Source of the DNA: Pedobacter agri PB92
GTDB lineage: Bacteria > Bacteroidota > Bacteroidia > Sphingobacteriales > Sphingobacteriaceae
Assembly (NCBI RefSeq): GCF_000258495.1
Contig: NZ_AJLG01000006.1
Coordinates: 1 to 60,454, forward strand
Reading direction: 5' to 3'
Length of the DNA stretch: 60,454 bases
This document shows positions 2,566 through 59,095 of this stretch, one piece after another. Both the position numbers and the translations under genes were made by a program. Below the pieces are notes generated by a model that saw only the letters and a list, made by a program, of their open reading frames with translations, was not told where the DNA came from and did no database searches. How positions within the stretch are numbered: the stretch's first letter is position 1; each line of letters begins with the position of its first letter.

Positions 2566-2865
2566 CGTCGGCTGAAGCCAGACGGCAATGAAATAAAACC
2601 ATGTACCTTATAAGCTTTTGGGATTCCATTCCGTTGGTTTCAACCAACGGAATGAATGATAATAATAGTGCTGGCTTTAGCCGAAAGTGCAAATGCATTT
2701 AAATCCAACCCAAGAATTACCATAATTTATTAATAAACCCGATAGAAGTGAAAATACTTTTTGTAGTACAAATAAAATAGATTGCCACGTCGTTCCTCCT
2801 CGCAATGACGACCATAGTGTACAACAGAAGCCAAAAAGATTGTAACGAATAGCGGGACTGCAAAC
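2566..2865. repeat. Composite dispersed repeat (family B, copy 1), interrupted; fills the gap before the peroxiredoxin
   Basis: This gap of about 530 bases has no credible gene. It contains GGCTGAAGCC (2569) with a matching GGCTTTAGCC (2671), a hairpin with 13-bp arms CATTCCGTTGGTT / AACCAACGGAATG (about 2627-2655), and the family B core from TTAATAAACCCGAT (2730) to AGCGGGACT (2859). Inside the core lies a segment resembling the right end of family A (CTCGCAATGACGAC, about 2799-2812). The same order of modules is found at 19554-19733. It is probably a MITE- or REP-like element. Confidence 0.65.
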
Positions 2866-10023: not shown

Positions 10024-11343
10024 TTATTGCGTTATTTTTCCTGTTGATTTTAGTAATGTGTAGTAAGCCAAACCTGCATCAGCTTTAGCTATTTCTAAAT
10101 TTATTTTTGCCTGATACAATAAGGTTTCAGCATCAATTCTATCCGTAACAGATGCTACGTTGTTTTTATATTTTGATGCCAGTAACTTATCATTCTCGGT
10201 AGCCTGGGCGATGGAAGTTTCCAAAACCTGAATCTTATTCATTGCTACCTGGTAATTTTGAAAGTTTTTGTTGATATCCGTTTTTACATTATCAGATAAA
10301 ATATCTTTTTGGATGCTAATTTCGCTTTGCTGAATTTTAGCTTCCTGTACTTTATTTCTATTGTTCCAAATACTACCAATATTCCAGCTTACTGTTGCGC
10401 CTAGAGTTATAGGCATTAAGTATTGGTTTACTGGCGGAATAAAATTACCGCTTGGGTTAATGTAGTATAAGTTTGCACCCACGCCAACCGTTGGCAACGT
10501 ATTCGCTCTGATGGTTTTGATATTGTAATCAGCAACTTTATTCTGCGCATCAAGTTGTTTCAGTTCCTGGCGGTTTGCCATTGCCAGGCCAATATATTCG
10601 TTTAATGAACTGGTTGCTTTTAAACCTGCGTTCGGATCGCTGATTTTAACTTCGGTATCTTCTGGCAAACCTAAAAGAATGTCAAGATTGTAATTGATAA
10701 TCTTGCGGTTGCTCTCAATGTCTAGCTGCGTAAGCGTAACATTTGCCTGTTGCAATTGAAAGCGCAACACATCGTTTTTAGTTACAATGCCTTGCTCAAA
10801 GAAACGTTGCGCTTGCTTAATTTGAGCCGCAATTGATTCTAAATTCTGGCCAACTACTTTTTTACTTTGCTCTACCTTATACAAAGCATAATACGTACTA
10901 ATTACCGCGTAAGTAATTTCTTCTTTGTTTTTATCTGCATCTAAACGGGCAACATCGGCTAATAACTTGGTCGACTCTTTTGCATATTTTAATTTTCCAC
11001 CGCCATAAACCAATTCCTGCACTGCTGCTGTACCTACAAAAGCATCAGCTCTGCGTGGTAAATGTAAAGAAGAACCACCGCCCGGCAACGTAAATGTACT
11101 GGTTGGAATTTCTGCGTGGTTATACATAAAGCTTGCGTTTGCCGTTGGCAGTACATTATCTTTTACCACTGCTAACTGCGCCTCGGCTTGCTGTATTTTA
11201 TTCTGAGATAGTTTTAAGTTTTTACTATTGGCTATACCAAGTTCTATTGCCTGATTGATATTTAGTTCTTTAGTGCTTTGCGCAAATAAAGCCGCTGGAA
11301 CTAATGATGCCACAAGCATTAATCTAATCGATTTGGGTATCAT
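10024..11343 (-). CDS. TolC family outer membrane efflux protein
   Basis: A 439-residue protein with a signal peptide ending near ALFAQS. It has the two-fold repeated TolC architecture of long alternating helices (for example LNINQAIELGIANSKNLKLSQNK-type and LNEYIGLAMANRQELKQLDAQ-type segments). It forms the outer membrane channel for the efflux pump. The start codon overlaps the stop of the regulator gene by 4 bases (ATGA), so regulator and pump are translationally coupled. Confidence 0.93.
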   Translation of the reverse strand: MIPKSIRLMLVASLVPAALFAQSTKELNINQAIELGIANSKNLKLSQNKIQQAEAQLAVVKDNVLPTANASFMYNHAEIPTSTFTLPGGGSSLHLPRRADAFVGTAAVQELVYGGGKLKYAKESTKLLADVARLDADKNKEEITYAVISTYYALYKVEQSKKVVGQNLESIAAQIKQAQRFFEQGIVTKNDVLRFQLQQANVTLTQLDIESNRKIINYNLDILLGLPEDTEVKISDPNAGLKATSSLNEYIGLAMANRQELKQLDAQNKVADYNIKTIRANTLPTVGVGANLYYINPSGNFIPPVNQYLMPITLGATVSWNIGSIWNNRNKVQEAKIQQSEISIQKDILSDNVKTDINKNFQNYQVAMNKIQVLETSIAQATENDKLLASKYKNNVASVTDRIDAETLLYQAKINLEIAKADAGLAYYTLLKSTGKITQ

Positions 11344-19552: not shown

Positions 19553-19750
19553 TTCACCGAAGCCAAACGGCAATGAATTAATGGCGAAGTTCATTCTTTC
19601 AAGGTTACTTTAGTTGCCTGTATTATGTTGGAAAATTCAGACTTTAGCCAAAAGCAACAATCTTAGTTTAATAAACCCGATTGTAGCGGAAACAAAAGCT
19701 TTTTCTGCTTTTGTTGTAGCAAAAAGCGGGACTGAAAACCACCATGGAAT
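19553..19750. repeat. Family B composite repeat, copy 2
   Basis: The gap of about 460 bases before the DUF4175 gene holds this repeat and no credible gene. Modules: GAAGCCAAACGGCAATGAA, then GACTTTAGCCAAAAGC, then the core from TTTAATAAACCCGATTG (19667) to AAAAAGCGGGACT (19733). The core contains a hairpin ACAAAAGC (19692-19699), loop TTTTTCT, GCTTTTGT (19707-19714). The order of modules matches copy 1, and the core matches copy 3 at 46484-46550. Confidence 0.7.
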
Positions 19751-19868: not shown

Positions 19869-22800
19869 ATGGTGAGCAATAATTACAACGATTTGTTGAG
19901 GAAGATAGATGAGTTTATCCGTAAATTTTATTTAAATAAGATTTTGCGGGGTGCCATTTATGCTGCCGCGATACTGCTTGCGCTATATTTGCTTGTATTT
20001 TTAGGTTTGTACTATTTGAACCCAACAGCCGGATTTAAAACCTTCATCTTCTTTGCTTATTTGCTGCTGGGTTTATTGTTAATAGGTTTCTTGATTATCA
20101 AACCTTTACTTTCGATGTTGAAACTGGGCAAACATTTGTCTTTTGATGAGGCTTCGGTTATTATCGGCAACCACTTTACTGATATTAAGGATAAGCTTTT
20201 AAACACCCTTCAACTGCATCAGCTTTCTGAAAATTTGCCAGAAAATAACCGGCTGATTCTAGCCAGTATTGACCAAAAGATTCTGGAGCTGAAGCCCGTT
20301 CCCTTCTACACCGCCGTTCGAATAAACGACAACAGGAAGTACTTAAAATACCTATTTATTCCGCTTTCTATCATTGTGCTGATTGCCCTTATTGCGCCTG
20401 CCATTTTACGTGAGGGAACCAATAGTTTCTTTAAATATGATGAATATATCGCTCCAAAAGCACCTTTTAATTTTACAGTGCTGAATAAAAAGTTAGCGGT
20501 TACGCAAGGCGATGACTTAACCATTAACTTAAAATTAACTGGTGATGAGTTACCTGCCGAAATTTATGTAGAGGATGGAAAAAATACCTACAAACTGGAA
20601 AAAGAAAACATCAGCCATTTTCATTACAGCATTAAAAATATTCAAAGTGATAAAAAACTTATTTTTAAAGGTGGCGGATTTAATTCATCGGCTTTTACGG
20701 TAAGCGTTAAACCTCGTCCTGAATTATTGAGTGCCACTGCAACTTTAAATTATCCGTCTTACCTGGGCAAAAAATCGGAAGTGATTGCCAACGTTGGCGA
20801 TATTCTTTTACCCGAGGGCACGCGAGTGACTTGGAACTTTAAAACTGGCAAAAGCAATGCGCTCTTGTTTAATTTGAATGGAAAGGAAAATATGCTAAAA
20901 ATTGAAGATAATGAAGCGGCCTTTCATGCAACAATTCACAATCATTCTAAATACAGCATCACGCCTAAAAATGATTTTGTAACACTTAGCGATTCTCTTT
21001 CGCACCAAATTTCGGTAATTAAAGATCAGGCCCCTACTATCCATGTTGAAGAAAAACCGGATTCTATAAGTAACAAAGCACTATACTTCAGCGGACAGGT
21101 TTCAGATGATTATGGTTTCAACAGGTTGACTTTTAAGTACAACATCAAGGAAAACAATAAGATAGTCAATACGGTAAGTAAGAACATCAGCATTAAACCA
21201 AATTCAACAGAAAATACATTTTTCTATTTTTGGGATTTAAAAGCATCGGCAGCCAAACCAGGACAAGAAATTGAATATTATTTTGAAGTAGCTGATAATG
21301 ACGGTGTTAATGGTTCTAAAATTACCCGTTCTGAAATAAAAACATTTAAACAACCTACAAAAAAGGAAACTGCAGAACAGGTAAGTGCTAACAGCCAGGT
21401 GTTAAAACAAAAAGTACAGTCTGCTATACGCTTAGCCAACACCATAGAAAAGGAAAGTAAAAAAGTTGCAGAAAGCCTGATTGATAAAAAACAGATATCG
21501 TTTGAGGATAAAAAACAGATTGAGGCTTTGCTGGATAAGCAAAAGCAGTTGGACGAGGCCGTAAAAGAAATTAAGGCGCAAAACGATAAAAATATTCAGC
21601 AGCAGGAAGACCAAAAACAGACAGAGGAGCTTTTAGAGAAGCAAAAACAGATTAAGGATTTGTTTGATAACGTTTTGGATGAAAAGACCAAGGAGCTTTT
21701 GCAGAAGTTGCAAAACCTGATGAACGAGAAGAATAAAGACCAAACGCAAAACGAATTGTCGAAAATGCAACTGGATAATAAAACGCTCAAAAATGAATTA
21801 GACAGAATCTTAGAACTCTACAAACAGCTTGAATTTGAGCAGAACCTGCAAAATGATATCGATCGTTTAAATGAATTGGCTAAGGAACAAAAAGAGCTTA
21901 GCAAGGAAACCGCCGGTAAAAAGCAGGATAACGAATCACTAAAACAAAAGCAGGATGCCTTGAATAAGGAAATGAAAGATTTAAAGGATGATTTAAAGAA
22001 GCTCGAAGAGAAAAATCAGGCTTTGGAAAAACCTAATCCATTTGAAAATCCGGAAAAAGATGTGCAGGATATCCAAAAAGAACAACAAGAAAGTAAAGAT
22101 GCTTTAGATAAAAAAGACTCGAAAAGTGCTAGTCAGAAACAGCAAAAAGCTGGCGAGCAAATGGAAAAACTTTCTAAAAAGATGAGTGAAATGCAGCAGC
22201 AAGGCGAAGAAATGGAAAACAATCTGAATGCCAGAGAGTTGCGTAAACTATTAGAGAATCTTCTCAACACGTCTTTTGAACAGGAGAAGGTAATGCTGAC
22301 GTTGAAGAAAATGACCGCCGCAGATCCTTCATACGTGACCAATGTTCAAAAACAAAGAAGTATTAAAGATAATCTAAAAACCATTGCGGATAGTTTGTAT
22401 GCTTTGAGTAAACGTGTTCCTCAGATAGAATCTACCGTTAATGAGGAAATGAATAAAATAAACTTCAATCTTGACAAGAGCTTAGAAAGCCTTGGCGAAA
22501 GAAGAACGCCTGAAGCCAATCGTTATCAGCAGTTTACCATGACTTCAATTAATAATTTAAGTTTAATGCTGAGTGAGGCTTTAAATCAGTTGCAGAATAT
22601 GCAAAAAAATTCGAAACCTGGTAGTGGTAAAAAGCAAAAACAAGGAATGAAACAGCTTTCGCAAATGCAGGAACAGCTGAATAAAAGTATGCAAAAGGCT
22701 CGTGAGCAGATGCAAAAATCTGGCGGCAACCAGGGAACTGTTGGTAAAGGACAAATGAGTCAGGAGTTTGGAAAGATGGCACAACAGCAGCAAATGATTC

Positions 22801-23186
22801 GCCAGGCTTTAGAAAAAATAAACCGGGAAGAAAATAAAGATGGTTCTGGCAAAATGGGTAATCTTAACGAGGCCATTAAGGAGATGAAACAAACGGAAAG
22901 TGACCTGGTTAACAAGCGTTTGCAGCAGGAAACATTAAATCGCCAAAAAGAATTGTTAACCAAGCTATTAGAAGCCGAAAAAGCAGAACGTGATCAGGAA
23001 GAAGATTCCAAACGCGAAAGTAAAGCGGCAAAAGAGTTTCCGCCATCATACCGAAAAATGTTAGATGATTTTAAAAAGCAGCAGCAAAATGGAAATGATA
23101 TGCTACAAAAATTACCTCCTAGTTTAAATTATTACTACAAAAATAAAATTGCTGAGTATTTGAAATCATTGAATACTGTCAGGTAA
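19869..23186 (+). CDS. DUF4175-like large membrane-anchored coiled-coil protein
   Basis: A 1105-residue protein. The N-terminus has hydrophobic segments at about 27-49, 57-80 and 157-178. A beta-rich region follows (about 190-500, with repeats such as YPSYLGKKSEV and VSDDYGFNRLTFKYN). A very long Lys/Gln/Glu-rich coiled coil runs from about 505 to 1090, with many short repeats (KQKQ, QQQ, MQKS). The family is known in Bacteroidota and some Proteobacteria but has no established function; a structural or envelope role is only a guess. ybeY follows 87 bases downstream with its own -7 element. Confidence 0.82.
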   Translation: MVSNNYNDLLRKIDEFIRKFYLNKILRGAIYAAAILLALYLLVFLGLYYLNPTAGFKTFIFFAYLLLGLLLIGFLIIKPLLSMLKLGKHLSFDEASVIIGNHFTDIKDKLLNTLQLHQLSENLPENNRLILASIDQKILELKPVPFYTAVRINDNRKYLKYLFIPLSIIVLIALIAPAILREGTNSFFKYDEYIAPKAPFNFTVLNKKLAVTQGDDLTINLKLTGDELPAEIYVEDGKNTYKLEKENISHFHYSIKNIQSDKKLIFKGGGFNSSAFTVSVKPRPELLSATATLNYPSYLGKKSEVIANVGDILLPEGTRVTWNFKTGKSNALLFNLNGKENMLKIEDNEAAFHATIHNHSKYSITPKNDFVTLSDSLSHQISVIKDQAPTIHVEEKPDSISNKALYFSGQVSDDYGFNRLTFKYNIKENNKIVNTVSKNISIKPNSTENTFFYFWDLKASAAKPGQEIEYYFEVADNDGVNGSKITRSEIKTFKQPTKKETAEQVSANSQVLKQKVQSAIRLANTIEKESKKVAESLIDKKQISFEDKKQIEALLDKQKQLDEAVKEIKAQNDKNIQQQEDQKQTEELLEKQKQIKDLFDNVLDEKTKELLQKLQNLMNEKNKDQTQNELSKMQLDNKTLKNELDRILELYKQLEFEQNLQNDIDRLNELAKEQKELSKETAGKKQDNESLKQKQDALNKEMKDLKDDLKKLEEKNQALEKPNPFENPEKDVQDIQKEQQESKDALDKKDSKSASQKQQKAGEQMEKLSKKMSEMQQQGEEMENNLNARELRKLLENLLNTSFEQEKVMLTLKKMTAADPSYVTNVQKQRSIKDNLKTIADSLYALSKRVPQIESTVNEEMNKINFNLDKSLESLGERRTPEANRYQQFTMTSINNLSLMLSEALNQLQNMQKNSKPGSGKKQKQGMKQLSQMQEQLNKSMQKAREQMQKSGGNQGTVGKGQMSQEFGKMAQQQQMIRQALEKINREENKDGSGKMGNLNEAIKEMKQTESDLVNKRLQQETLNRQKELLTKLLEAEKAERDQEEDSKRESKAAKEFPPSYRKMLDDFKKQQQNGNDMLQKLPPSLNYYYKNKIAEYLKSLNTVR

Positions 23187-23245
23187 GTTCGATAGCTATA
23201 AAATTCTTCGCTGTCTATTGAATGACAAAGACGACGAATATTTCT

Positions 23246-23253
23246 TAAATTTG
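23246..23253 (+). promoter_or_regulatory. -7 element before ybeY
   Basis: An exact TAAATTTG, 20 bases before the ybeY ATG. A TTG at 23218-23220 is the nearest -33 candidate, but its 25-base spacing is long. Confidence 0.5.
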
Positions 23254-23273
23254 CGGCTTTAAACCTCATCAAT

Positions 23274-23711
23274 ATGCCTGCGATTTCATTTTTTACTGAA
23301 TCTGTTCGTTACAATCTTCCACAAAAGTTAAAGGTTAAAAAGTGGATTAAAGCGACCATCGAAAAAGAGGGTTTCGAATTGCAGGAACTAAATTTCATTT
23401 TCTGCAGCGATGAATATTTGCTGGGCATCAATCAACAGTATTTAAATCATGATACCTACACCGATATTATTACTTTCGATAATTCGGACGTAGAAAAACA
23501 GATTGTTAGCGACATTTTCATCAGCATTGAGCGTGTTAAAGAAAACGCAAAAACTTTCAAAATAAATGAGTTTGATGAAGTTTGCCGCATTATGATTCAT
23601 GGAACCTTGCACTTGCTTGGCTATAAGGATAAAGGCAAAGCAGCGAAAACCCTAATGACTCAAAAAGAAGATGAATATTTAAGTTATAGAAGTTTAGTTG
23701 AACTGATTTAA
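23274..23711 (+). CDS. ybeY: Endoribonuclease YbeY, rRNA maturation factor
   Basis: A 145-residue single-domain metalloprotein involved in 16S rRNA 3' end processing and ribosome quality control. The zinc-binding signature is present as HGTLHLLGYKD: the first two histidines are kept, but the third ligand, usually His in the form HGxLHLxGYDH, is Asp here. Preceding conserved elements include YTDIITFD and SDIFISIERVKENA. The length is normal for Bacteroidota. An intergenic stretch of 535 bases follows. Confidence 0.95.
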   Translation: MPAISFFTESVRYNLPQKLKVKKWIKATIEKEGFELQELNFIFCSDEYLLGINQQYLNHDTYTDIITFDNSDVEKQIVSDIFISIERVKENAKTFKINEFDEVCRIMIHGTLHLLGYKDKGKAAKTLMTQKEDEYLSYRSLVELI

Positions 23712-24246: not shown

Positions 24247-26109
24247 TTGAGCACACTAATTGCGGCAGAAGGTCTGGGTCATGGTTATCATGACGAATGG
24301 CTATTTAAAAATTTAACTTTGGGTATTAACTCTGGTCAGCGTGTAGCGTTGGTCGGCATTAATGGCGCTGGTAAGAGTACACTTTTGAAATTACTGGCAG
24401 AGAGATTTCCTCCACTCGAAGGTAAGATTGTTAAAAATAAAGCTGTTAAGATTGGCTTCTTAGATCAGGAACCTCAGTTTACGGAGGGTTTTTCAATCAG
24501 CGATCATATTTTCTCTTTGGAGAATAAGCAACAACAGTTGATTAAAGAATATGAAGAACTAATTGAAAATCCTAACCCGGATGAAAAAACGCTCAATCGT
24601 TTATACGAAGAATTAAGTGAGCATAATGCCTGGGAATATGAGCATGAGATCAAAACCATTTTAAACAGAATGGGCATTACTCATTTGCAACAAAAAATTG
24701 CTACGCTCTCTGGTGGACAAAAGAAGAGGTTGGCTTTGGCTAAACTTTTAATTGAAGATCCTGAAATTTTAGTGTTGGATGAGCCAACGAATCATTTGGA
24801 CATTGATACCATTGAGTGGCTTGAAAAATTGTTGACTACCGGACAGAAAACCATCCTATTGGTTACACATGATCGATATTTTTTAGATAATGTTTGCAAT
24901 ACAATAGTGGAACTGGATCGGGGCAAGATTTTCAATTACAACGGAAATTATGCTTATTTTCTAGAAAAGAAATCCGAAAGAGAAGCTTTAGACGCGACTG
25001 TTCAACATAAGAATCAGCAGCTACTAAAGAAAGAATTAGAGTGGATGAGGCGTATGCCACAGGCTCGTGCAACTAAATCTAATGCCAGGATCAATGCTTT
25101 TTACGAATTAGAGGAAAAAACAAAGAAAAAGTCTGATAATCAGACTATTAACCTCCAAATGAAGATGTCTCGTCAGGGAGGCAAAATTATTGAACTTGAT
25201 CACATCGCGAAGTCGTTTGATGGACGTGCCATCATTAACGATTTTAGTTATACTTTTAAAAAGGGAGACCGCATTGGCTTAGCCGGTAAAAATGGTACAG
25301 GTAAATCAACATTACTAAATGTTATCACCAGTCAGCTAACGCCTGATTCTGGAACGGTTGATACCGGAGAAACTACAGTTTTTGGTTATTACAAACAAGG
25401 TGGCTTGACATTCGATCCTAAAGAAAGAGTGATTGATATTGTAAAGTCAGATGCGGAATATATCAAAATGGCCGACGGTTCCGTGATCACTGCTTCTGCC
25501 CTATTAACACTTTTTCTCTTCCCACCGAAGAAACAACATGGCATGGTAGAGAAGTTAAGTGGTGGAGAAAAGAAGCGTTTGAATCTGATGAAAGTTTTAA
25601 TGCAGAATCCAAACTTCCTGATATTAGATGAGCCAACAAACGATTTAGATATTGATACGCTAAATGTGCTTGAAGAATTTTTAGAAAATTTCCCAGGTAT
25701 ATTAATGTTGGTTTCACATGATCGATATCTTTTAGATAAGATGAGTGATCAACTTTTTATCATGGAAGGTGAAGGTGTAGTTAAGATTTACAACGGTAAT
25801 TATTCAGAATATCGCCTAAGTCTGGAACAACCAAAGACAAAGAATGAGACTAAAAAAGTAGCCGAAATTTCAGCAGAACAAGTATCAGTTAAAACTATAA
25901 AAAAATTAAGTTTTAAAGAACAAAAAGAACTTGATGATAGTGAAAAAGGAATGGCTGATACTGAAAATAAAATCGCTGAGTTGACTGAAAGCTTACTTAA
26001 AATTGATACTTCAGATTATATCAAAATTCAGGAAGTATCAAGTGAAATCGAAAAACTGAAACTAAAACTGGATGAATTTACAATGCGTTGGTTAGAACTT
26101 TCTGAGTAG
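24247..26109 (+). CDS. ABC-F family ATPase (Uup-like)
   Basis: A 620-residue soluble protein with two ABC domains and no membrane segment. Domain 1: Walker A GINGAGKST, signature LSGGQKKR, Walker B LVLDEPTNHLD. The linker is charged. Domain 2: GKNGTGKST, LSGGEKKR, LILDEPTNDLD. The last 80 residues form a helical hairpin (SFKEQKELDDSEKGM to LKLKLDEF), as in Uup. ABC-F proteins act on ribosomes or, for Uup, on branched DNA. The start is TTG at 24247: the protein lines up with the family from STLIAAEGLGH and no ATG or GTG fits. A transporter role is excluded by the lack of membrane domains. Confidence 0.93.
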   Translation: MSTLIAAEGLGHGYHDEWLFKNLTLGINSGQRVALVGINGAGKSTLLKLLAERFPPLEGKIVKNKAVKIGFLDQEPQFTEGFSISDHIFSLENKQQQLIKEYEELIENPNPDEKTLNRLYEELSEHNAWEYEHEIKTILNRMGITHLQQKIATLSGGQKKRLALAKLLIEDPEILVLDEPTNHLDIDTIEWLEKLLTTGQKTILLVTHDRYFLDNVCNTIVELDRGKIFNYNGNYAYFLEKKSEREALDATVQHKNQQLLKKELEWMRRMPQARATKSNARINAFYELEEKTKKKSDNQTINLQMKMSRQGGKIIELDHIAKSFDGRAIINDFSYTFKKGDRIGLAGKNGTGKSTLLNVITSQLTPDSGTVDTGETTVFGYYKQGGLTFDPKERVIDIVKSDAEYIKMADGSVITASALLTLFLFPPKKQHGMVEKLSGGEKKRLNLMKVLMQNPNFLILDEPTNDLDIDTLNVLEEFLENFPGILMLVSHDRYLLDKMSDQLFIMEGEGVVKIYNGNYSEYRLSLEQPKTKNETKKVAEISAEQVSVKTIKKLSFKEQKELDDSEKGMADTENKIAELTESLLKIDTSDYIKIQEVSSEIEKLKLKLDEFTMRWLELSE

Positions 26110-26142: not shown

Positions 26143-26158
26143 TGTTTCACGTGGAACG
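26143..26158. promoter_or_regulatory. parS: parS-like ParB binding site 1
   Basis: TGTTTCACGTGGAACG differs at two positions from the parS consensus TGTTTCACGTGAAACA. It lies in the ABC-F / mnmG gap, upstream of the -7 element of mnmG. Confidence 0.8.
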
Positions 26159-26174
26159 TTCAAGATCGTAGACC

Positions 26175-26182
26175 TAAATTTG
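26175..26182 (+). promoter_or_regulatory. -7 element of mnmG between the two parS-like sites
   Basis: An exact TAAATTTG, 86 bases before the mnmG start; the second parS-like site would lie in the 5' leader. Confidence 0.5.
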
Positions 26183-26233
26183 CATTGGGTATGAGCAATC
26201 TTGAAAACCACGAAGTATTACAAGTTACCAAAA

Positions 26234-26249
26234 TGTTCCACGTGGAACG
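26234..26249. promoter_or_regulatory. parS: parS-like ParB binding site 2
   Basis: TGTTCCACGTGGAACG contains the perfect 14-bp palindrome GTTCCACGTGGAAC, a known parS variant. It ends 18 bases before the mnmG start codon. Confidence 0.85.
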
Positions 26250-26267: not shown

Positions 26268-28130
26268 ATGTTTTCAAAGTACGATTTGATTGTTGTTGGT
26301 GCAGGCCATGCGGGATGTGAAGCTGCTGCTGCTGCTGCCAATTTAGGATCATCTGTTTTATTAATTACAATGAACATGGGCACCATTGCCCAGATGAGTT
26401 GTAACCCTGCAATGGGTGGCGTAGCAAAAGGACAGATCGTTCGTGAAGTAGATGCGATGGGCGGTTATTCAGGCATCATATCTGATAAATCAACCATTCA
26501 GTTTAGAATGCTAAATAAATCTAAAGGCCCTGCGATGTGGAGCCCAAGAGCGCAAATAGATCGAATGCGTTTTGCAGAAGAGTGGCGTTTGGCTTTGGAG
26601 CGAACACCTAATTTAGATATCTGGCAAGATAGTGTGGTTGGATTATTAGTGAAAGATAATACAGTTTATGGCGTAAAAACTTCATTAGGTATTGAGATTG
26701 AAAGCACAGCCGTTGTATTAACAAACGGTACCTTCCTGAATGGCATCATTCACATTGGAGAAAAGAAATTTGGCGGAGGCAGAACAGCAGAGAGAGCATC
26801 AACGGGCATTACGGAGCAGTTGGTGGAACTCGGAATGGAAGCCGGCAGAATGAAGACCGGTACCCCACCACGGGTGGATGGTAGAAGTCTTGATTATACC
26901 AAAATGGAAGAACAGTGGGGAGATGAAGACCCAGGAAAATTTTCTTATACTGATACAGGAGTTTCGAAAGACCAGCGTTGTTGCTGGATCACCTATACAA
27001 ACGGTGATGTTCACGAAACCTTGAAGGAAGGCTTTGAAAAATCGCCAATGTTCACTGGCCGAATTAAAGGTTTAGGTCCTCGCTATTGTCCGTCTATCGA
27101 GGATAAAATCAATCGCTTTGCGGAGCGTGATCGTCACCAGATTTTCGTTGAACCTGAAGGATGGAATACTTGTGAAATCTATGTAAATGGATTTTCAACT
27201 TCTCTTCCGGAGGATGTACAATTTAAAGCCTTAAGATTAATACCTGGTTTTGAAAATGCGAAAATGTTTAGACCGGGATATGCCATTGAATATGATTTCT
27301 TCCCACCTACCCAGTTATCGTTAACATTAGAAACCAAACTGATCAGCAATTTATTTTTAGCCGGACAGATTAATGGTACCACAGGTTATGAGGAGGCAGC
27401 ATGCCAAGGCTTCATGGCTGGGATTAATGCTCACCAAAAAATCAATCAAAAACATGAGCTGATTATGAAACGATCAGACAGTTATATTGGTGTTTTGATT
27501 GATGATTTGGTAACCAAAGGAACAGAAGAACCTTATCGTATGTTTACTTCCAGGGCAGAACACCGTTTATTGTTAAGACAAGATAATGCAGATATCCGCC
27601 TATCTCCTATTGGTCATCAGTTAGGGTTGATATCTGATGAACGTTTAGCAAAAGTTAATCAAAAAGTTTCAGCTGCTGATGCATTAGTAAAATTTACCAA
27701 GTCTCAAGGTATAGAAATGGCAGATGCTAACCCAATGCTTGAAAGCTTGGGATCTAGTATATTAAATCAGAATGTTAAGATTCATAGTTTGGTGGGTAGA
27801 CCGCATGTAGGCTTGCAAGATATTATCAAAGTAAGTAAGCCGTTAGCTAATGCAACTGTTAGTTTAGATAGTGAAACGATAGAACAGGCCGAAATTAAGA
27901 TTAAGTACGAAAGCTATTTTGAAAAGGAAAATGAGATTGTAGCCAAAATGTTAAAAATGGAAGACAAAGAAATTAAGCCTGATTTTGACTATAATAAAAT
28001 TGTTTCTATATCAAAAGAAGCCCGTGAAAAATTATTTAAGATAAAACCTCGGACTTTAGGTCAGGCATCGAGAATTTCTGGTGTTTCTCCTTCTGATATT
28101 TCCGTTTTGATGGTTTATATATCTAAGTAA
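26268..28130 (+). CDS. mnmG: tRNA uridine-5-carboxymethylaminomethyl modification enzyme MnmG (GidA)
   Basis: A 620-residue FAD protein that with MnmE modifies the wobble uridine of several tRNAs. The N-terminal dinucleotide fold shows [12 protein letters not shown], then [12 protein letters not shown], the [10 protein letters not shown] region, and the [19 protein letters not shown] segment. The helical C-terminal domain ends in [13 protein letters not shown]. Length is standard. Genes of this family often lie near the chromosomal origin in bacteria, consistent with the two parS-like sites upstream. Confidence 0.97.
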
Positions 28131-32057: not shown

Positions 32058-32506
32058 CTAAAAAACATTTACTTTATCAACGCTGTTGATAACTATAGAA
32101 CAACTGTTAGCTTTATGTAGAAATAAGACTAACAAATAAATTTGAATGTTTAAAGCTACTCTAAAAAGACAATTTGCCACAATCTTTTACCCAATTTTTA
32201 AGCACATTTGTACAAGTAATTAACTTTTCACACACTTATAAACAATTAACATTCCAATATTGATAAAATTTAAGTCACTTTTCGATAGTGCTGAAAATCA
32301 ATCTTATCATATTACAAAAATGTAATTCAAATGTTAGTAAACGATTAACAACTTAGATTAAAGAACTTTTTTTCGAAACTTGCCAACAATACTAACACAC
32401 TAATAAACAAACAAGATTTATTTATTTAAAATAACTTATTAATTATTGAGACGTGGAAAGCTTTATCTTTGGCCAACGTCAAAATTCAAAAAAGGAAAAT
32501 TTAAAA
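32058..32506. promoter_or_regulatory. AT-rich divergent nadB/nadA control region with palindrome
   Basis: About 450 gene-free, very AT-rich bases. A palindrome TTATCAAC-GCT-GTTGATAA lies at 32074-32092, 17 bases before the nadB start. Its halves differ by one or two bases from a DnaA box, but it may equally be an operator for NAD control. Other weak direct and inverted repeats (TATTGATAAAAT, ATCTTATCATATT) are present. The nadA -7 element TATCTTTG lies at 32464-32471. Confidence 0.55.
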
Positions 32507-46445: not shown

Positions 46446-46483
46446 TTCTTTGGAATTAATGGTTGATGCTCCTGGCGGCCATT

Positions 46484-46550
46484 AGTCCCGCTTTTCGCTA
46501 TATCCCAAATAGAAAAAATTTGGGGATGCCGCTGCAATCGGGTTTAATAA
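46484..46550. repeat. Family B core repeat, copy 3 (reverse orientation)
   Basis: AGTCCCGCTTTTCGCTA, arm ATCCCAAAT (46502-46510), loop AGAAAAA, arm ATTTGGGGAT, GCCGCTGCAATCGGGTTTAATAA. It is the reverse complement of the core at 19667-19733 with a different stem but the same loop. Located between convergent cdsA and the methyltransferase gene. Confidence 0.75.
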
Positions 46551-50278: not shown

Positions 50279-50310
50279 CAGTTTCTTTTTACGCGAAAGC
50301 ACCGTCAATT

Positions 50311-50487
50311 CGATATTTGGCAGGTCTCCTGACTTACGCCCCGTTTTATCGCCTTCCCATACCCGAAAGTACAGTGGCATGAATGATAAAACAGTTGTTC
50401 GATGAACAGCGTTTACAGTTGCGCGACAGCTCGTGATTTGCACACGATTCCCTTTTAATTCCAACATTACATCGGAAACCTCTATCG
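50311..50487 (-). ncRNA. Cobalamin (AdoCbl-type) riboswitch controlling metE
   Basis: Read on the minus strand: P1 5' arm CGATA, AGGTTTCC...GGAAT, AAAAGGGAATCGTG, GCGCAACTGTAAACGC, CATGCCACTG, GGGTATGGGAAGGCG, GTAAGTCAGGAGACCTGCC (B12 box), then TATCG closing P1. These are the standard conserved segments in the right order. It lies 200 bases upstream of metE on the same strand. A minus-strand frame running through it is not a gene. Confidence 0.95.
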
Positions 50488-50523
50488 GTTGATGAAAAAT
50501 AAAGTTAAGAACTTACATCGAAA

Positions 50524-58735: not shown

Positions 58736-58800
58736 AACATTTGATTATCTGGAAAGCAAAAACAAAAGCCTTTTTTAAGGTTGGTCCCGCCATACACTTC

Positions 58801-58842
58801 AAGTCCGCACCCAATGAAAAATTGGGTTTGCGGGCTTTTTGT
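58801..58842 (+). terminator. Terminator of the DUF2752-TM2 operon within a gene-free stretch
   Basis: Arms AAG-CCGC-CCCAAT and ATTGGG-GCGGG-CTT around GAAAA, followed by TTTTT. The gap 58736-59095 shows nothing else beyond a possible repeat (GGTCCCGCCATACACTTCAAG, 58784). Confidence 0.8.
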
Positions 58843-59095
58843 TTCTGTCGGGTTTAGATTGCAACACCTGCCTTGCTTGGTTTGGGTAGCCCATTGCCCA
58901 CCTGACTGGTAACCTCGATGCAATAGATTTTCATCTAGATTGAAGCATAGTAAAGCAACGAGATCTATAAACCTTGCAATTCAATTCAAATAATTTCTTG
59001 GATTCGTTCGAAATGACGGTTAATCTGCCATTAACGAAAAATATTAGATTAAAAATCCACTCTCACAAAAACATCAAATTATATATCTTTATGCC

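What the first reader, a model, noticed from the sequence alone, without database searches (positions are those of the whole stretch)
26143..26249. Two parS-like sites flank the mnmG promoter
TGTTTCACGTGGAACG and TGTTCCACGTGGAACG lie 91 bases apart (start to start) in the leader of mnmG. They match the ParB-binding consensus with at most a few changes; the second holds a perfect 14-bp palindrome. parS sites cluster near replication origins in most bacteria, and mnmG is often origin-proximal. A bound ParB could also affect mnmG transcription.
Basis: partly seen in the sequence, partly recalled or inferred. Interest (0 to 1): 0.7.

Follow-up and report, generated by a model that had tools for sequence, protein, structure and literature searches.

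The report
Chromosome centromere sites beside mnmG
Two short DNA sites just before the mnmG gene of a Pedobacter-like bacterium are the only exact copies in its draft genome of the sequence known to be bound by the chromosome-segregation protein ParB; they likely serve as the chromosome's centromere, because in two finely sampled single-contig relatives the same pair lies within about 26 kb of the GC-skew switch that would mark the replication origin, roughly 0.9 million bases from the dnaA gene usually taken as its landmark.

Summary
TGTTTCACGTGGAACG and TGTTCCACGTGGAACG lie at 26143 and 26234 and are the only two exact GTTYCACGTGRAAC sites in the 5.14 Mb draft genome (0.05 expected). All 80 related Pedobacter/Mucilaginibacter mnmG loci kept have an exact site within 400 bp upstream of mnmG, 78 have two or three, and none has a copy with 1-2 mismatches there. 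The genome has one ParB, beside a ParA-like gene, with parS-type rather than Noc-type discriminating residues. In two single-contig Pedobacter genomes sampled finely, the best GC-skew breakpoint falls within 26 kb of the sites while dnaA lies about 0.9 Mb away; two coarsely sampled genomes agree to within 0.21 Mb. These are most likely true parS sites marking the replication origin. A promoter between the sites is supported in Mucilaginibacter, only weakly in Pedobacter. ParB binding is untested.

The parts
26143..26158 (.). parS site 1 (core GTTTCACGTGGAAC, 26144-26157)
   Evidence: exact match to the parS core; one of only 2 in the draft genome
26234..26249 (.). parS site 2 (core GTTCCACGTGGAAC, 26235-26248, perfect palindrome), 18 bp before the mnmG ATG
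   Evidence: exact match; a last site whose core starts 20-36 bp before the ATG recurs in 78 of 80 related loci
26175..26182 (+). TAAATTTG, matches the Bacteroidota -7 promoter consensus TAnnTTTG (consensus recalled), 31 nt from the start of the site-1 core
   Evidence: same geometry (28-31 nt) in 19 of 36 Mucilaginibacter-group loci but 1 of 43 Pedobacter-group loci, the window itself
26268..28130 (+). mnmG (gidA)
   Evidence: TIGR00136, 829.8 bits against cut-off 524.85
24247..26109 (+). ABC-F ATPase gene upstream of the sites (start codon not verified)
   Evidence: NF000355, 402.4 bits against cut-off 380
32058..32452 (.). conserved AT-rich nadB/nadA intergenic block, tentative oriC candidate, 5.8 kb from the parS sites
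   Evidence: 393-397 bp in 34 Pedobacter sequences including this one, 226 of 400 aligned columns invariant; no Rfam match at E up to 0.1; DnaA-box density in the window not above background

Best explanation
The two (near-)palindromes in the mnmG leader are exact matches to the ParB-binding parS core and are likely the chromosome's only centromere sites, where ParB would load to start segregation of the newly copied origin. Shown: sequence, uniqueness in the draft genome, extreme conservation, a single ParB (beside a ParA-like gene) with parS-type discriminating residues, and a GC-skew switch at the same place in closed relatives. Inferred from the known ParABS mechanism: CTP-bound ParB dimers load at the sites, close into clamps, slide onto neighbouring DNA, recruit SMC, and are moved apart by ParA, so that sister origins separate. 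Inferred: the origin lies within about 26 kb of the sites, whereas dnaA and parB lie roughly 0.7-1.4 Mb away in Pedobacter. The sites stay beside mnmG, upstream, downstream or both, in most Bacteroidota scored, which fits a positional (centromere) role rather than a gene switch.
For: Only 2 exact sites in the genome, 0.05 expected. 80 of 80 related mnmG loci (the best 80 of 462) carry at least one exact site within 400 bp upstream: 68 have two, 10 have three, 2 have one, and one of those two (L018) holds only 68 bp of upstream DNA. With the window added, 170 exact sites and none with 1-2 mismatches in those stretches. 274 of 296 phylum genomes have exact sites; the reversed control gives 0 or 1 per genome. 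57 of 60 scored genomes have one within 2.1 kb of mnmG. Of 22 genomes lacking exact sites, 19 have a 1-mismatch site, and 11 of the 12 with a listed mnmG place have it within 260 bp of mnmG. One ParB in G000, next to a ParA-like ATPase; residues equivalent to Caulobacter R173 and G201 are R and G, and the GERRxRA motif is present. Best skew breakpoint at the sites in G343 and G337, at mnmG in G206 and within 0.21 Mb in G333. Precedent: PMC10197239 (passages and section 19 read) set the origins of 12 gut bacteria from parS clusters plus GC skew, with support from read coverage, and notes that dnaA does not systematically mark them.
Against: ParB binding was not measured. The window's own genome is in 379 contigs, so its origin cannot be placed directly, and the skew inside the window is dominated by gene orientation. 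The coarse fit in G333 lies 0.21 Mb from mnmG, and only 70% of its bootstraps fall within 300 kb of mnmG. In G343 a corrected breakpoint at +221 to +251 kb fits almost as well as the best one (0.0155 against 0.0137), and the correction was fitted with mnmG as the divide, so it leans that way; the raw measure does not. No DnaA-box cluster above background was found near the sites in the window, G337 or G343. 3 of 60 scored genomes have no exact site within 2.2 kb of mnmG: G037 (different contig), G166 (26.6 kb) and G179 (12-18 kb).
Confidence: 0.92

Rival explanations
1. The sites are chiefly operators of mnmG: ParB or another protein bound at them controls mnmG transcription, and any segregation role is secondary.
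For: In 19 of 36 Mucilaginibacter-group loci a TAnnTTTG box lies 28-31 nt from the start of the first core, against a mean of 0.12 when the letters are shuffled, while the distance to the ATG varies; the window has the same geometry at 31 nt. The -33 region would then overlap parS.
Against: Only 1 of 43 Pedobacter-group loci shows this box. Spacing between the sites ranges from 24 to 205 bp in loci with two sites, too close in some for a promoter between them. Downstream-only exact sites occur in f20, f21 and f23, and both-sided sites in f3, f4, f15, f17 and f27.
Confidence: 0.08
2. They are parS sites, but the replication origin is at dnaA, as many closed assemblies imply by starting there.
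For: Small DnaA-box groups flank dnaA in 4 of the 6 Pedobacter dnaA loci fetched (G302, G328, G333, G343; in G303 and G337 the record starts just before dnaA); several single-contig assemblies begin at dnaA.
Against: Skew-fit scores at dnaA against mnmG: -0.03 and 0.32 in G333, 0.22 and 0.63 in G343, 0.22 and 0.78 in G206, 0.35 and 0.69 in G337. The fine breakpoints are at the sites in G343 and G337. The DnaA boxes may be dnaA autoregulation (inference).
Confidence: 0.03
3. Chance palindromes, or sites of another CACGTG-binding regulator.
For: CACGTG is a common core for DNA-binding proteins (recalled); about one 3-mismatch match per window is expected by chance.
Against: Exact 14-mer pair, 0.05 expected genome-wide; kept in 80 of 80 relatives with no 1-2 mismatch copy; the genome's single ParB has matching residues.
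Confidence: 0.02

Closest known systems
Chromosomal parS of the ParABS system (B. subtilis Spo0J, Caulobacter ParB)
   Same: Same 14-bp core, few clustered copies, next to the skew-defined origin in relatives, one cognate ParB with the GERRxRA motif beside a ParA-like gene
   Different: Only two sites, and in relatives the cluster is not near parB or, in most, dnaA; it sits beside mnmG
Origin-defining parS clusters in gut bacteria, including Bacteroides caecimuris (PMC10197239, passages and section 19 read)
   Same: parS cluster together with the GC-skew origin, dnaA not always at the origin
   Different: That work used Hi-C; its main text has 0 occurrences of mnmG or gidA
Noc-binding sites (NBS)
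   Same: Palindromic relative bound by a ParB paralogue
   Different: NBS has A at core position 1 and C at position 6 (PMC7383237 passages); these sites have G and A
gidA-oriC neighbourhood (gidA listed among origin genes in PMC2099444, passages read)
   Same: mnmG close to the origin
   Different: In Pedobacter relatives dnaA lies 0.7-1.2 Mb away from it

Membership tests
parS (ParABS centromere) | match to the 14-bp core GTTYCACGTGRAAC | tested here: met
   two exact matches
parS (ParABS centromere) | few copies, clustered in one region | tested here: met
   2 in the draft genome, 91 bp apart; 2 in each of 12 single-contig Pedobacter
parS (ParABS centromere) | close to the replication origin | tested here: met
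   by GC skew in relatives G343 and G337; coarser in G206 and G333; not measurable in the window's own 379-contig assembly
parS (ParABS centromere) | cognate ParA and ParB in the genome | tested here: met
   ParB at C91:10212-10724 above the TIGR00180 cut-off; adjacent ParA-like ATPase, below every NCBIfam cut-off listed
parS (ParABS centromere) | ParB has parS-contact and discriminating residues (R173, G201 type) | tested here: met
   Q, G, K, R, N, G, R match at equivalents of 162, 170, 171, 173, 178, 201, 204; 172 is N, not S; numbering by ungapped spacing
parS (ParABS centromere) | ParB binds the sites in the cell | not testable with these tools
   needs ChIP-seq or gel shift
parS (ParABS centromere) | proximity to parAB (common, not defining) | tested here: not met
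   0 of 40 single-contig genomes have parB within 50 kb of mnmG
Noc/NBS | core A at position 1 and C at position 6; Noc with Q173/R201 | tested here: not met
   sites have G1 and A6; ParB has R and G; TIGR04285 noc score 237.5, below cut-off 315
mnmG operator | site position relative to the mnmG promoter kept in relatives | tested here: inconclusive
   kept in 19 of 36 Mucilaginibacter-group loci, 1 of 43 Pedobacter-group loci; exact sites downstream only in 3 of 60 genomes

The most novel reading that the evidence does not exclude
In Bacteroidota the chromosomal centromere is bound to a single housekeeping gene, mnmG, rather than to parAB or dnaA: the parS pair has followed mnmG while dnaA and parAB drifted as far as about 2 Mb away. 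In part of the phylum the first parS is also built into the mnmG promoter, so that ParB loading at the origin throttles production of a tRNA-modifying enzyme and ties translation capacity to chromosome segregation.
Probability: 0.15. Interest if true: 0.75.

Novelty: new member of a known kind. Interest (0 to 1): 0.5.

Why it matters
It places the likely replication origin of Pedobacter and relatives at mnmG, about 0.9 Mb from dnaA, the landmark at which several of the sampled assemblies start; replication-rate estimates and chromosome maps that start from dnaA would be off. It also shows that a centromere can stay attached to one gene (mnmG) over much of a phylum while separated from the genes of its own binding protein, and this raises a testable question: why mnmG?

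Tried and rejected
oriC: DnaA-box clusters (TTATCCACA, up to 1 mismatch) were sought in the window, in 80 kb around mnmG of G337 and around mnmG of G343. The maxima (2-3 per 400 bp) equal the background of sampled loci, so oriC was not located. The nadB/nadA gap is a conserved candidate only. dnaA flanks show small box groups in some genomes. Of five mnmG loci of families f3/f4, four show no box cluster; L260 (G095, f3) has four boxes in 275 bp (two exact), about 2.9-3.2 kb past its downstream parS site, plus an exact box 36 bp past that site. That is above the 2-3 seen as background in other genomes; it was not followed further.

The inter-site spacer as a repeat element: a search of the own genome found only itself.

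A fold of the two sites as one strand (z -2.76) follows from two near-palindromes in inverted repeat; not pursued.

Local skew inside the window is dominated by gene orientation and was not used.

The 1-mismatch site on C32 lies in a coding frame and was set aside.

Literature: Livny 2007 is not held. Searches for parS with mnmG (0 papers), parS with Bacteroidetes and gidA, ParB/parS with Bacteroidetes, Flavobacterium, Bacteroides or Bacteroidota, parS distribution (20 of 146 listed), oriC/dnaA/gidA with Bacteroidetes and parS/gidA/promoter/oriC listed no paper whose title or shown abstract start reports the mnmG link. Passages only were read of PMC9864904, PMC2099444, PMC2768785, PMC7383237 and PMC7022226 (the last has 0 hits for gidA and Bacteroid); passages and one section of PMC10197239; the other listed papers were not opened.

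Full report
What is there. The window is contig C6 of a 5.14 Mb draft genome in 379 contigs, 99.9% complete. Its MnmG is up to 96% identical to Pedobacter proteins, so I call it Pedobacter-like. Two 16-mers, TGTTTCACGTGGAACG (26143) and TGTTCCACGTGGAACG (26234), lie between an ABC-F gene and the mnmG ATG at 26268. Each differs from TGTTYCACGTGRAACA only in its last base.

More than chance. The core GTTYCACGTGRAAC occurs twice in the whole genome, both times here; the next best site has one mismatch and lies in a transporter-like reading frame on another contig. The window's composition predicts 0.05 exact matches in 5.14 Mb; the reversed control finds no exact match in this genome. Looser matches are at chance level: 43 places with up to 2 mismatches against 42 for the control, and 2 in the window with up to 3 mismatches against 0.96 expected.

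Conservation close by. The best 80 of 462 mnmG relatives in named genomes were kept. Within 400 bp upstream of the mnmG start, 68 of 80 have two exact sites, 10 have three and 2 have one; one of those two (L018) holds only 68 bp of upstream DNA. Counting the window, these stretches hold 170 exact sites, none with 1 or 2 mismatches, and 4 matches with 3 mismatches; the remaining 1.02 Mb of flanks hold no exact site and 6 one-mismatch matches. The two degenerate positions vary (T 58/C 112; G 149/A 21). Spacing between the sites is not conserved (24 to 205 bp in two-site loci), while the core nearest the gene starts 20-36 bp before the ATG in 78 of 80 loci.

Conservation across the phylum. 274 of 296 sampled Bacteroidota genomes have at least one exact site, most often two; the reversed control gives 0 or 1 per genome. 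Places were listed for only part of these, so linkage to mnmG was scored where both places were listed: 60 genomes including this one and 12 single-contig Pedobacter. Six genomes with listed sites but no listed mnmG place (G064, G158, G162, G178, G230, G238) were dropped. In 56 of 60 the nearest site is within 260 bp of the mnmG match, in 57 of 60 within 2.1 kb. Counting sites within 2.2 kb, they are upstream only in 34, on both sides in 19, downstream only in 3, upstream plus inside the gene in 1, and absent in 3 (G037 on another contig, G166 26.6 kb, G179 12-18 kb). Of the 22 genomes without an exact site, 19 have a one-mismatch site; genome-wide such sites are no commoner than the reversed control in several genomes (for example G033, G190), so position is the evidence. 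mnmG places were listed for 12 of the 22, and in 11 of these a one-mismatch site lies within 260 bp of mnmG, the exception being G091; the other 10 were not scored.

The protein side. G000 has one ParB (C91), beside a ParA-like ATPase whose NCBIfam matches are all below cut-off. PMC7383237 (passages read) shows that R173 and G201 of Caulobacter ParB go with parS binding, and Q173 and R201 with Noc sites. By ungapped spacing, this ParB has R and G there, and matches at 162, 170, 171, 178 and 204; position 172 is N instead of S, and 179/184 are Y and K. The GERRxRA motif is present. Its score against the Noc model is below that model's cut-off.

Where the origin is. In 12 single-contig Pedobacter genomes mnmG is 0.69-1.17 Mb from the nearest dnaA and 0.75-1.41 Mb from parB. 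Among 40 single-contig genomes of the phylum (the 35 plus G103, G118, G170, G206, G269), dnaA is within 50 kb of mnmG in 6 and beyond 0.3 Mb in 28, and parB is within 50 kb in none (most genome lengths rounded to 0.1 Mb; circularity not checked). GC skew was sampled in 20-kb pieces. With 20 pieces each and the terminus assumed opposite, the best origin was 2.50-2.61 Mb in G206 (mnmG 2.55), 4.88-4.89 in G343 (mnmG 4.97) and 3.05 in G333 (mnmG 3.26). Bootstraps fell within 300 kb of mnmG in 96%, 97% and 70%, and within 300 kb of dnaA in 0.2%, 7.6% and 0%. In G337 the coarse best was 5.54-5.83 (mnmG 5.43). With 40 pieces, the best breakpoint was between -24 and +1 kb of the sites (raw) or +1 and +26 kb (corrected for gene orientation) in G343, and between -18 and +2 kb in G337 by both measures. 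In G343 a corrected breakpoint at +221 to +251 kb was nearly as good, and the correction was fitted with mnmG as the divide; the raw measure is free of that. So the skew switch is at mnmG/parS, about 0.9 Mb from dnaA in these two. That the switch is the replication origin is an inference from established practice. PMC10197239 (passages and section 19 read) combined parS clusters, GC skew and coverage to set the origins of 12 gut bacteria and gives the same caution about dnaA.

Promoter question. A TAAATTTG box (Bacteroidota -7 consensus recalled) lies 31 nt from the start of the site-1 core. The same geometry, 28-31 nt, occurs in 19 of 36 Mucilaginibacter-group loci (mean 0.12 with shuffled letters) although the distance to the ATG varies; it occurs in 1 of 43 Pedobacter-group loci, the window itself (shuffle mean 0.08). 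Loci are related, so the counts are not independent events. In Mucilaginibacter the first parS would overlap the -33 region, so ParB and RNA polymerase could compete (inference). Because sites can be downstream only, this cannot be the general function.

Mechanism. Most likely (0.92) these are parS sites: ParB is predicted to load here and spread, condense the origin region with SMC, and let ParA separate sister origins. The steps after sequence recognition are taken from the known ParABS mechanism and were not tested here.

Open. oriC itself was not found: DnaA-box density near mnmG equals background in the window, G337 and G343. A 395-bp AT-rich gap between nadB and nadA, 5.8 kb from the sites, keeps its length (393-397 bp) in 34 Pedobacter sequences including the window, with 226 of 400 columns invariant, and is detectable in Mucilaginibacter; it is a candidate only. 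In G095 (family f3) four DnaA boxes lie in 275 bp about 3 kb past mnmG's downstream parS site, another lead not followed.

Noticed in passing
window 32058-32452: Non-coding nadB/nadA gap, 76% AT, of near-constant length and high conservation in Pedobacter; no Rfam match; possible oriC or regulatory element.
   Followed up: partly
L260 (G095), 10720-10994: Four DnaA-box-like sites (two exact) in 275 bp, about 3 kb past the downstream parS of mnmG.
   Followed up: no
single-contig Pedobacter genomes G312, G350, G360, G354: Two (G354) or three DnaA matches above the family cut-off in one genome.
   Followed up: no
window 50301-50498 (-): Cobalamin riboswitch.
   Followed up: no
window 2731-2863, 19669-19737, 46480-46549, 58779-58859: Four Flavo-1 RNAs in one 60-kb window.
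   Followed up: no
window 19869-23711: A DUF4175-matching gene (19869-23186) and ybeY (23274-23711) lie upstream of mnmG; a similar large-gene/short-gene/mnmG order by ORF size is seen in f4 loci L257-L259 and L261.
   Followed up: no
G017:C1:1086926: An exact parS site inside the mnmG coding match.
   Followed up: no
G072 and G166 (family f9): A parS site 25.5 kb (G072) and 26.6 kb (G166) from mnmG; in G166 it is the only exact one, in G072 a second lies just upstream of mnmG.
   Followed up: no
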